Assembly: GCA_947178575.1 (NCBI GenBank)
Contig: CAMWYX010000003.1
Location: forward strand, 1 to 64,000
Source of the DNA: an uncultured Ruminococcus sp.
GTDB lineage: Bacteria; Bacillota; Clostridia; Oscillospirales; Ruminococcaceae
Length of the DNA stretch: 64,000 bases
Direction: 5' to 3'
Shown: one piece after another, positions 13,168 to 47,395 of the stretch
How the letters are laid out: every line of letters begins with the position of its first letter
Numbering within the stretch: position 1 is the first letter of the stretch
Made by a program: the position numbers and the translations under genes
The notes under the pieces: model-generated
Seen by the model: only the letters and a program-made list of their open reading frames with translations
What the model was told of the DNA's origin: nothing
The model's database searches: none

Positions 13168-14424
13168 ATGATTGAAAAGAAACTTAAAAAATCGGCGGAT
13201 AAAATCAGAATGTCCGCCGAACTGAAAGAACGTATTCTGAATGAATGCGGAAACGAAGATGTTCCGGAAGATGTTTCCGAAAATATCGGGGAACAGCATA
13301 TTTTCACGGTTGAACCGGAAAAATCACGCACGGCGTTCAGGATAATATCTTCTGTGGCGTGTGTAGCCGGTATATCCGGAATTGTTCTTTCCGGAATTTT
13401 CATAGGCGGAGGACAGTTTGCGGATATTCCGAACGATGAAAGCGAACTGACAGACACAACAGAGGAAAGTGAAGCCCTGCTTGTTTCTCCTGATGCGGAT
13501 AAACTTACAGACAGAACAGAAGAAAGTGAAATCATGACGGATATTCCGGAATCAGCCACGGAAGAAATCAGCAGTTATACGGAAGAACCGGAAAATAATA
13601 TTCCGTTTGCGGATTCGTCGGGGAATATAGTATTCAGCGGATTCCGGAATATTCCGCCCTACAATGAATCAACGGAAAATCTTCTTGACGAAGAAAAATC
13701 ACAGAATATCCGGAATATTCTTGCAGGGCTCGAATGGGAGGAGATAGATGTATCTGAATACAGTACGGCGTATTACGGAAATGTCGATACTATGAATTTT
13801 TATGCTCCTGATGATGAAAGACGATGTACGCTCTCAATAAATATGGACGGAAGCAATACGGCTATGTATTCTGAAGCATATATCTATCTGGGAGATGATA
13901 CGTTCCGTACAATTCCGCCTAAATATTACAGAGTTGATGCGGATAAAATATTCAGCGGAATGACAGAATATATTTATAATTTTTATAATAATTATCCGCC
14001 GTTCGGCTCGATATATAAGCAGACGGATAAAATTTACTGTTCATGCGATAAATACAACGGATATATTTCGGACGAAAATTTGCAGGCTTTAAGCCGTGCA
14101 TTTATCGGCTGGCAGTGGGATAATGAAGAAATCGTTGACGTTCCGATGCATGAGGAAACCGGAACACAGGCATTTGTTACATTTACTATGGACGGTATGC
14201 ATAATACCGATGAATATATCGTATATCCTGACGGAACGGTTGAATGGGTTGAGCGTCCATGGAATAATGAGTTAAGCGATTATGATTCCGAGATTATCCA
14301 CCGTTACTATGATGTTGACGGCGAGGACGACCCTAATCAGCCCACAGGCGGATTATGCCTGATGCTGAACAGAGTTATTACAGAAAATGTTTTAGGCGGA
14401 AGTATAGTTCAGAAATCATGGTAA
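13168..14424 (+). CDS. Membrane-anchored partner of the ECF sigma factor
   Basis: This 418-residue protein has a short charged cytoplasmic N-terminus (about 1-50), one membrane helix near residues 57-80, and a Glu/Ser/Thr-rich extracytoplasmic stalk in which a segment recurs (LTDTTEESE and LTDRTEESE). An outer domain of about 270 residues follows. I recognise no family in the outer domain. Position behind an ECF sigma gene and the topology suggest an anti-sigma factor. The HxxxCxxC zinc motif of ZAS anti-sigmas is absent. GGAG lies 11 nt upstream of the ATG. Confidence 0.65.
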   Translation: MIEKKLKKSADKIRMSAELKERILNECGNEDVPEDVSENIGEQHIFTVEPEKSRTAFRIISSVACVAGISGIVLSGIFIGGGQFADIPNDESELTDTTEESEALLVSPDADKLTDRTEESEIMTDIPESATEEISSYTEEPENNIPFADSSGNIVFSGFRNIPPYNESTENLLDEEKSQNIRNILAGLEWEEIDVSEYSTAYYGNVDTMNFYAPDDERRCTLSINMDGSNTAMYSEAYIYLGDDTFRTIPPKYYRVDADKIFSGMTEYIYNFYNNYPPFGSIYKQTDKIYCSCDKYNGYISDENLQALSRAFIGWQWDNEEIVDVPMHEETGTQAFVTFTMDGMHNTDEYIVYPDGTVEWVERPWNNELSDYDSEIIHRYYDVDGEDDPNQPTGGLCLMLNRVITENVLGGSIVQKSW

Positions 14425-30157: not shown

Positions 30158-30631
30158 ATGAAAAAACGTTCTGTGAATAAGCTGATATTCTACATTGTAT
30201 CTGCCGAAGCGGTCGGATTTCTTTCGGCGGTTTTTTCAGGCGGATTCAATGATTTTTACCTGAGCCGTGAAAAACCTCCTCTTCTTCCGCCTGCGTGGGT
30301 ATTTCCTTTAGTATGGATAATCCTGTATGCTGTCATGGGATTTTCTGCTGGTCTGATTCAAAACTCGGACAGTGAGGGTTATGAGAAAAAACAGGCTCTG
30401 CGGTTATACTGGATTCAGCTTTTTGTTAATTTTTTGTGGAGTATATTTTTCTTCCGGTTTGAAGCACTGACGATGGCATCAGTAACAGTGATTATACTTT
30501 TTATTCTTATTCTTATGATGATATATCTTTTCAGGAAAATCATTCCCTTGTCCGGAAATATCAACATACCATATCTGGTATGGACTGCATTTGCGACGTA
30601 TCTGACGATATACATAAGCATACAGAACTGA
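30158..30631 (+). CDS. tspO: TspO/MBR family membrane protein
   Basis: This 157-residue protein has five membrane helices and the family's Trp/Pro-rich segments (PPLLPPAWVFPLVW, LFVNFLWSIFFFR). TspO proteins bind porphyrins and related hydrophobic ligands and are linked to stress or tetrapyrrole handling. ATG 30158 with GGGAGTGA upstream is preferred to the ORF-track start 75 nt earlier. A TATAAT lies at 30122-30127 without a good -35 box. Confidence 0.88.
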   Translation: MKKRSVNKLIFYIVSAEAVGFLSAVFSGGFNDFYLSREKPPLLPPAWVFPLVWIILYAVMGFSAGLIQNSDSEGYEKKQALRLYWIQLFVNFLWSIFFFRFEALTMASVTVIILFILILMMIYLFRKIIPLSGNINIPYLVWTAFATYLTIYISIQN

Positions 30632-30651: not shown

Positions 30652-30695
30652 TTAAAAAATTCCGTATCTTTTATTCAGATACGGAATGTATTTTT
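30652..30695. terminator. Bidirectional terminator of tspO and the candidate RNA
   Basis: ATTCCGTATCT (30659-30669) and AGATACGGAAT (30677-30687) pair around 7 nt. On the minus strand TTTTTT follows immediately; on plus GTATTTTTAT follows. The minus side is stronger. Confidence 0.8.
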
Positions 30696-30918
30696 ATATC
30701 TCAGAACCTGTATCAACAGATGATTCACCTGCCTTTCGCAAAAATTTATGTTCAGGGATTCACGAACAAATAAGCTGTTAATCAGCTGTTGATACAAGCT
30801 CTGATTTTTTAATGCCGGCAAGAGAGGTGAGCCGACGGCGGATTTCATTGGTGACGGTCATAATCAGTGCTTAAATAATGACCGCCTTTTTATACGAGAT
30901 TTTTCTATCTCTTAACTT
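30655..30918 (-). ncRNA. Candidate structured RNA
   Basis: The 367-nt gap between tspO and the lysozyme gene reads on the minus strand as a plausible RNA unit. An extended -10 (TGCTATAAT, box 30925-30930) is present with only a weak -35. A small hairpin follows (GAGAT/ATCTC), then GGTCAT/ATGACC, then GCCGTCGGC/GCCGGC. Next is a long imperfect helix whose arms both contain TATCAACAG or its complement (30710-30718 and 30786-30794). A strong intrinsic terminator ends it. It is not RNase P, tmRNA or SRP RNA. Overlapping short ORFs of 27 and 58 codons exist but lack ribosome sites. Confidence 0.4.
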
Positions 30919-30998
30919 GTATACATTATAGCACGGAACAGACTTTTATAACACCTCTGAAATCCGATATTTCACAATAAAAAAACGCTGATTCTGAT

Positions 30999-31691
30999 TT
31001 ACAGTAAAAATTCCTGATTTCTTATTATTGTTTTGCCGTCGATTATGACTGTCAGACGGTGCGGAGCTTCGGCATCTGATTTAAGACCGTTCAGACCGGC
31101 GGCACGGATTATTGACGGATAGTCCTCATATGCTTCATCGAGGTCAACACTTCCGCTTATTCCGTCGACAGAACCGGTTGAAGATTTCTGCCACATTCCG
31201 TATGTTCCGCCGTAATTTGGCTTGGAAACGCCGTATTCCGCTATCCAAAGTGCATAGCGTTCACGGATATACTCCTCAGTGTATGCCGTGAGATTATATG
31301 AAGACATATAAAGACCGGCGAAATATCCGGCATTCTCCAGCGTATCGATAAATGAGCGGATTATTGCGCTTACTCTTGTTCGTCCAAGGCTGAATATCCC
31401 GCTTTCCTCGACATCGTAATACATAGGATATTCAAAGCGTTTGCCCTTTACGACTTCAAGGAACGCATTGGCTTCCTGAACAGCTTCTTCGGCAGAGGTT
31501 GCATAGCTGTACCAGTACGCACCCATCGGTATGCCGTTTTCCGAACAGCCTTTGTAGTTGGCTTCAAACCGTCTGTCAGTCTGTGAGGCAAGTCTGCCGT
31601 ATCCGGCACGGAGAACAGCGAAATCTGTTTTTACATTTTCCCAGTTGATTATTCCCTGCCATTCCGATACATCGATTCCGTTTCTTATCAT
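30999..31691 (-). CDS. GH25 lysozyme-like muramidase
   Basis: This 230-residue protein has a GH25 domain starting directly at the N-terminus: GIDVSEWQG (catalytic Asp), YYDVEES (catalytic Asp/Glu pair) and LWIAEYG. The family cleaves the MurNAc-GlcNAc bond of peptidoglycan. A C-terminal extension of about 30 residues follows (LTVIIDGKTII). No signal peptide or wall-binding repeat is seen. ATG 31691 is chosen because AAAAGGAG lies 6 nt upstream; the ORF-track start lies 54 nt earlier. No phage genes flank it. Confidence 0.88.
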   Translation of the reverse strand: MIRNGIDVSEWQGIINWENVKTDFAVLRAGYGRLASQTDRRFEANYKGCSENGIPMGAYWYSYATSAEEAVQEANAFLEVVKGKRFEYPMYYDVEESGIFSLGRTRVSAIIRSFIDTLENAGYFAGLYMSSYNLTAYTEEYIRERYALWIAEYGVSKPNYGGTYGMWQKSSTGSVDGISGSVDLDEAYEDYPSIIRAAGLNGLKSDAEAPHRLTVIIDGKTIIRNQEFLL

Positions 31692-31820
31692 ATCGTACTC
31701 CTTTTGATTATTATTATTTGCAGGAGATATTATTACAGTCTCCACGATAAATTGTATGCCCTGACTTCCGGATATATGTGTTCTGATTGTTGCGGTAAGT
31801 TCAAATCACAGCATTTCTGC

Positions 31821-47041: not shown

Positions 47042-47047
47042 GTTAAG

Positions 47048-47395
47048 ATGACCAGACCGATAAGCCGGGTTCTGTCGGGTGCGGCAATTTATCTACACTT
47101 ATCGTTGCCGATAAGTTCAAGCCGTCATTACTGAATATCCGCCGAGCAGACGTTAAGATATTCAGCACCAATAGACGTTGCATCGGATAGGGTTTACATG
47201 GCAGTGCAGTCTCCTGCACTCCGGTGAGCTTTTACCTCGCCTTTCCACCTTTACCTGAAGATATATCAGGAAGTTTATTTCTGTTGCACTTGCCCTAAGG
47301 TCGCCCTCGGCTGTCGTTAACAGCTATCCTGCTCTGTGATGCCCGGACTTTCCTCATAAACATAAAACGTTTCCGCTGCCGCATAGTCTGCTCAC
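47048..47395 (-). ncRNA. rnpB: RNase P RNA
   Basis: The minus strand shows the conserved 5' element GAGGAAAGTCCGGGC and the 3' element ACAGAACCCGGCTTAT of bacterial RNase P RNA. CCTAAGG-like and CACTGCCATG-type segments lie between them. The ends can pair into P1 (GAGCAGAC with GTCTGGTC, one mismatch). The predicted promoter places the 5' end at 47395. Length is about 348 nt. It processes the 5' leader of tRNAs as the catalytic subunit of RNase P. Confidence 0.95.

What the first reader, a model, noticed from the sequence alone, without database searches (positions are those of the whole stretch)
30655..30930. Candidate 260-nt structured RNA between tspO and the lysozyme gene
The minus strand has an extended -10, successive stem-loops, a long helix built from two distant TATCAACAG-type arms, and a strong terminator. 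No track ORF covers it. It matches no common RNA class that I can recognise. A 58-codon and a 27-codon ORF overlap across an A6 run, so a frameshifted gene remnant is the main alternative.
Basis: inference. Interest (0 to 1): 0.6.

Follow-up and report, generated by a model that had tools for sequence, protein, structure and literature searches.

The report
Probable small RNA built around transposon palindrome
A short stretch between two ordinary genes of a Ruminococcus-like gut bacterium very probably encodes a folded non-coding RNA, but its most striking part, the long helix, looks like the remnant of a small transposon-derived palindrome rather than a new RNA class.

Summary
Window 30655-30922, minus strand, folds far better than shuffles (z -9.6), has an extended -10 (TGCTATAAT), three small stem-loops, a 28-nt-arm long helix and a terminator. 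It matches no Rfam family and no protein family. Both domains fold better on the minus strand than on the plus strand, as expected if the minus-strand RNA is the product.

Related sequences split it into two parts. (1) The long helix (30701-30804) resembles an IS5-type MITE. Its arm GAACCTGTATCAACAG differs by two transitions from the end (GAACCTGTACCAATAG) of an insertion sequence present at least seven times in the same genome. It shares terminal AGAACCTGT, inner motifs and folding strand with a palindromic ~162-bp MITE family found in 52 of 125 genus genomes. (2) The 5' half resembles two intergenic RNA-like loci in other species (33 of 38 positions). Its loop UCACCUCUCUU looks like an anti-Shine-Dalgarno. 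This homology is suggestive only (genus-wide E about 0.05-0.3) and no fourth member was found. The terminator doubles as tspO's.

Best reading: a transcribed, MITE-containing small RNA, like the MITE-derived sRNAs of Coxiella. No expression data exist here. The gene-remnant alternative is disfavoured.

The parts
30925..30933 (-). extended -10 promoter element TGCTATAAT; predicted start of transcription near 30918
   Evidence: read directly from sequence; weak -35, not listed by the sigma-70 scan; no transcription data
30896..30911 (-). stem-loop 1, GAGAU-AGAAAA-AUCUC
   Evidence: MFE and centroid fold
30853..30886 (-). stem-loop 2, GGCGGUCAU...AUGACCGUC; G141 and G018 have CGGCGGC...GCCGCCG in the same order
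30812..30846 (-). motif shared with intergenic RNA-like loci G141 (L148) and G018 (L149): GAAATCCGCCGTCGGCTCACCTCTCTTGCCGGCAT, 33 of 38 alignment columns identical; holds stem-loop 3
   Evidence: suggestive, genus-wide E about 0.05 to 0.3
30820..30830 (-). loop UCACCUCUCUU of stem-loop 3 (30814-30836), resembling the 16S rRNA anti-Shine-Dalgarno tail
   Evidence: fold; similar sequence in G141 and G018, UUCCACCUCUCCUU; the resemblance to 16S rRNA is from general knowledge
30701..30804 (-). long hairpin; degenerate IS5-type MITE palindrome with terminal repeat GAACCTGTATCAACAG, flanks TCA / TGA (TNA-type)
30659..30687 (.). bidirectional intrinsic terminator; ends the predicted minus-strand RNA and probably tspO (+)
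   Evidence: the same terminator type occurs elsewhere in the genus
30158..30631 (+). tspO (TspO/MBR family), convergent neighbour
   Evidence: Pfam PF03073, E 6.5e-40
30999..31745 (-). glycosyl hydrolase 25 (lysozyme-type) gene upstream of the RNA, same strand
   Evidence: Pfam PF01183, E 6e-24

Best explanation
A free-standing non-coding RNA of about 264 nt is transcribed from an extended -10 promoter near 30925-30933 (minus strand), reads through a 5' domain of three small stem-loops and then through a degenerate IS5-type MITE palindrome, and stops at the bidirectional terminator shared with tspO. The MITE supplies the long stable hairpin, which would protect the RNA and separate the 5' domain from the terminator. 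The working part is most likely the 5' domain: the C-rich loop UCACCUCUCUU of stem-loop 3 could pair with Shine-Dalgarno sequences (AAGAGAGGUGA-like) of target mRNAs and block translation, as the C-rich regions of RsaE/RoxS do. Shown: sequence features, fold, strand bias, MITE-like ends, similarity to two other loci. Inferred: transcription, the transcript ends, loop-RBS pairing, targets.
For: Fold z -9.6, with both domains better on the minus strand thanks to G-U pairs (hairpin: 5 G-U on minus, 0 on plus). A single-sequence model reaches an intergenic MITE in G136 over its full length; that MITE is one of a family in 52 of 125 genus genomes with TNA-type duplications (TTA/TTA, TCA/TCA, TAA/TAA). 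The arm matches 14 of 16 bases of an IS end found 7 times in the own genome, always at contig ends; the IS encodes an IS5-type transposase. The 5' domain is collinear with intergenic loci in G141 and G018 that have promoter-like sequence upstream and an intrinsic terminator right after; the R2 model built from those two finds the window locus as the best hit in its genome (27.8 bits, next 20.4). Precedent: Coxiella sRNAs CbsR3, CbsR13 and CbsR16 arose from MITEs, CbsR3/13 with promoters upstream of the insert and CbsR16 with a shared bidirectional terminator (PMC5896051). C-rich regions pairing with ribosome-binding sites: RsaE/RoxS (PMC4409812).
Against: No expression data. No good -35. The 5'-domain homology rests on two near-identical loci and a 38-column motif (expected 0.05 to 0.3 such matches over the genus); coding sequences reach similar model scores (G060, 28.7 bits); nothing in 398 family genomes. 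Stem-loop 3 alone is not more stable than shuffles (z 0.5), and G141 has a competing fold. The MITE profile itself scores the window hairpin no better than chance (nhmmer E 10), so the MITE call rests on terminal-anchored similarity (shuffle p 2e-4 to 3e-2 for single comparisons).
Confidence: 0.5

Rival explanations
1. An inert IS5-type MITE relic lying next to the tspO terminator: DNA palindrome and terminator together give the strong fold, and no dedicated RNA exists.
For: The long hairpin and terminator give most of the folding energy; MITEs of this kind are abundant in the genus; the terminator is bidirectional; no close homolog of the whole region in 125 genus genomes.
Against: The 5' domain lies outside the MITE and folds with minus-strand bias (z -3.5 against -0.3); extended -10 placed just upstream; 5'-domain similarity to two other loci.
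Confidence: 0.32
2. A 3' UTR or transcription-insulating element of the GH25 lysozyme gene (minus strand): no own promoter, only read-through that ends at 30655.
For: GH25 ends at 30999, the RNA follows on the same strand within 80 nt.
Against: Extended -10 between the two; none of the 29 tspO loci fetched from relatives has GH25 next to it, so the pairing is not conserved.
Confidence: 0.12
3. A frameshifted gene remnant (57- and 27-codon ORFs overlapping at the A6 run).
For: Two overlapping ORFs exist.
Against: No Pfam match, no tblastn match for the 57-aa ORF in plasmids, no Shine-Dalgarno, start codon and frame not kept in G141/G018 (indels of 2 and 1 within the motif), and a 28-nt inverted repeat inside the ORF.
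Confidence: 0.04

Closest known systems
MITE-derived sRNAs CbsR3, CbsR13 (QMITE1) and CbsR16 (QMITE2) of Coxiella burnetii (PMC5896051)
   Same: sRNA whose body is or contains a MITE palindrome; promoter outside the insert; bidirectional terminator in one case; very stable long hairpin
   Different: There transcription is proven and the MITE is the body of the sRNA; here no expression data, and the 5' domain is a separate module; different transposon family
RsaE/RoxS C-rich-loop sRNAs of Firmicutes (PMC4409812)
   Same: C-rich loop that can pair with Shine-Dalgarno sequences
   Different: Different sequence and architecture; no Rfam match; targets and regulation not tested
IS5-type MITEs (IS5 family, TNA target duplication)
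   Same: Terminal repeat related to a resident IS5-type element, short palindrome, TNA-like flanks
   Different: The window copy is degenerate (arms 86% complementary, flanks TCA/TGA not identical) and shorter (104 bp against about 162 bp)
Palindromic candidate structured RNAs of human microbiomes (PMC8040213)
   Same: Intergenic palindromes in gut bacteria predicted to form RNA hairpins
   Different: That paper's main text names no Ruminococcus and no transposons; its motif tables were not searched

Membership tests
IS5-type MITE (long hairpin only) | terminal inverted repeats related to a resident autonomous IS | tested here: met
   GAACCTGTATCAACAG against own IS end GAACCTGTACCAATAG, 14 of 16; IS end present 7 times in own genome; transposase IS5-type in relatives' copies
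IS5-type MITE (long hairpin only) | target-site duplication (TNA) | tested here: inconclusive
   family copies show TTA/TTA, TCA/TCA, TAA/TAA; window copy has TCA and TGA, one base different
IS5-type MITE (long hairpin only) | several copies in the genome | tested here: not met
   no second copy of the window palindrome in the own genome; only the IS ends recur. Hence called a relic resembling the family, not a confirmed member
MITE-derived sRNA (Coxiella type) | MITE sequence within a transcribed sRNA | not testable with these tools
   no transcriptome for this genome
RsaE/RoxS sRNA family | Rfam model match | tested here: not met
   no match at gathering score, and not among the matches up to E 10
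C-rich-loop, RBS-pairing sRNA (works like) | single-stranded C-rich loop able to pair with SD | tested here: inconclusive
   loop UCACCUCUCUU unpaired in the window MFE fold; similar loop sequence in G141/G018, where a competing fold exists; targets not tested
Any Rfam 15 family | covariance-model match | tested here: not met
   window; L148, L149; MITEs
Protein-coding remnant | homologous protein or codon conservation | tested here: not met

The most novel reading that the evidence does not exclude
A new family of anti-Shine-Dalgarno-loop sRNAs in Ruminococcus (5' domain shared by G000, G141 and G018 at different chromosomal sites), whose 3' half is exchanged: own terminator in G141/G018, IS5-type MITE plus a borrowed terminator here. 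The MITE family itself may be shaped by RNA-level pairing on one strand.
Probability: 0.2. Interest if true: 0.6.

Novelty: new member of a known kind. Interest (0 to 1): 0.4.

Why it matters
If transcribed, it is a Firmicute counterpart of the MITE-derived sRNAs known from Coxiella and shows how a transposon palindrome becomes the body of a small RNA. The loop that resembles the 16S rRNA tail makes a direct, testable prediction about targets. It also warns that a very strong fold in gut-bacterial intergenic DNA can come largely from a mobile palindrome.

Tried and rejected
DNA similarity of the whole region: no homolog in 125 genus genomes, phages or plasmids; short hits such as L002/L003 are only the common terminator. 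The nhmmer hit in L037, syntenic-looking near GH25, reads as coding sequence (asparagine synthase-like, from its sequence) and was rejected. Weak R1 hits L097-L102 are terminators or noise, except L099, which led to the G141 locus. R2 hits in G060, G116, G118, G028 look like coding noise. MAFFT would not place the gaps in the 5'-domain alignment; a CM-based alignment was used. Scan of a viral collection with an arm pattern: nothing. Identification of the IS from plasmid records failed. Synteny of tspO and GH25 in relatives: none. 6S RNA and riboswitch readings: no Rfam match, and no gene downstream on the same strand.

Full report
The finding lies in a Ruminococcus-like metagenome-assembled genome (most relatives found by the lysozyme gene are titled Ruminococcus sp. 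or Clostridia), between tspO (30158-30631, +) and a GH25 lysozyme-type gene (30999-31745, -).

Observation. The minus strand of 30655-30930 folds to -90.1 kcal/mol against a shuffle mean of -51.6 (z -9.57). The inverted repeat 30701-30728/30777-30804 is real. A terminator-like hairpin at 30659-30687 scores on both strands, so it may equally be tspO's. An extended -10 (TGCTATAAT, 30933-30925) is visible, without a convincing -35. No Rfam family matches and the small ORFs have no protein relatives in the sets searched and no Shine-Dalgarno.

Strand. Folded separately, the 5' domain has z -3.5 on the minus strand and -0.3 on the plus; the long hairpin -7.1 and -3.7. The difference comes largely from G-U pairs (hairpin: 5 on minus, 0 on plus). 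A pure DNA palindrome would not need this bias, but the changes in the arms are too few to prove selection.

Long hairpin. A covariance model made from the window sequence alone found a full-length intergenic hit behind recR in G136 (the gene name is read from its sequence). As DNA, that hit proved to be one of many copies of a palindromic ~162-bp element with ends AGAACCTGTCCACATAG, present in 52 of 125 genus genomes and flanked by TNA duplications. The window arm reads AGAACCTGTATCAACAG. Variants in between exist: AGAACCTGTATTCATAG (G141) and AGAACCTGTATCAACATATACGTATGATACAGGTTCT (G096). In the own genome the closest other sequence is GAACCTGTACCAATAG, the end of an insertion sequence found seven times, each time at a contig end, as expected of a multicopy element that breaks the assembly. 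Copies in relatives encode an IS5-type transposase C-terminus. Single pairwise comparisons with the window hairpin have shuffle p-values from 2e-4 to 3e-2, and the 162-bp profile does not pick out the window copy; the case rests on agreement at the termini, in the inner CTTTCG..AAAATTT block, in TNA-like flanks (TCA and TGA) and in folding strand. It is a degenerate copy, not a textbook one.

5' domain. The same model also hit an intergenic region of G141. There and in G018 (90% alike over 118 bases) the sequence GATAGAAAA (AATAGAAAA in G018), a GGCGGC/GCCGCC hairpin and GAAATCTGCCGTCGGCTTCCACCTCTCCTTGCCGACAT occur in the window's order, between promoter-like sequence and an intrinsic terminator, between a glycosidase gene and a response-regulator gene with its own promoter-like sequence. 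Local alignment with the window gives 33 of 38 columns. Two null models expect 0.05 and 0.3 such matches over the genus. A model of the G141/G018 pair ranks the window locus first in its genome (27.8 bits, next 20.4), but coding noise elsewhere reaches 28.7, and 398 family genomes add no member. I take the homology as likely, not shown.

Mechanism. The loop of stem-loop 3, UCACCUCUCUU, resembles the tail of 16S rRNA that pairs with Shine-Dalgarno sequences (general knowledge). The simplest mechanism is pairing with ribosome-binding sites, as for RsaE/RoxS (PMC4409812). The MITE hairpin would serve as stabiliser and spacer. Small RNAs derived from MITEs, with promoters outside the insert or sharing a bidirectional terminator, are documented in Coxiella (PMC5896051; review PMC10969869). 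Transcription here is inferred.

Verdict. Observation confirmed; interpretation partly supported; a probable small RNA with a transposon palindrome as its main body, new member of a known kind. Interest 0.4.

Noticed in passing
L118-L139 (relatives), e.g. L118:1509-1670: A 162-bp palindromic MITE family (ends AGAACCTGTCCACATAG) in 52 of 125 genus genomes. In 19 aligned copies 23 of 60 pairs show more than one Watson-Crick type, and on one strand G-U cells outnumber A-C cells 58 to 16; that strand folds better in all 19 copies (mean difference 13 kcal/mol). No Rfam match. Copies are related by descent, so counts are not independent.
   Followed up: partly
own genome, contigs C17, C27, C38, C65, C68, C76, C79 (G000); L187, L188: The same insertion-sequence end (GAACCTGTACCAATAGGCTAAAAACG) sits at seven contig ends, so an IS5-type element fragments this assembly; in C65 it appears to interrupt a dockerin-like ORF.
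   Followed up: partly
L260:82-2072 (G027): Two inverted copies of this IS end flank about 2 kb with a polysaccharide deacetylase/dockerin-type gene and no intact transposase, possibly a cargo-carrying non-autonomous element.
   Followed up: no
L149 about 1650-1730 (G018): A truncated MITE end (GGAACTTGTCTTCATAGGC...) lies just behind the terminator of the G018 RNA-like locus, so MITEs adjoin this RNA in two genomes.
   Followed up: no
window 47045-47394 (-): RNase P RNA class A, a clear ordinary match.
   Followed up: no
window 13172-13235 (+): Weak second hit of model R2 (20.4 bits) made of an AT-rich lead and a CGGCGGA/UCCGCCG hairpin; probably a terminator or chance.
   Followed up: no
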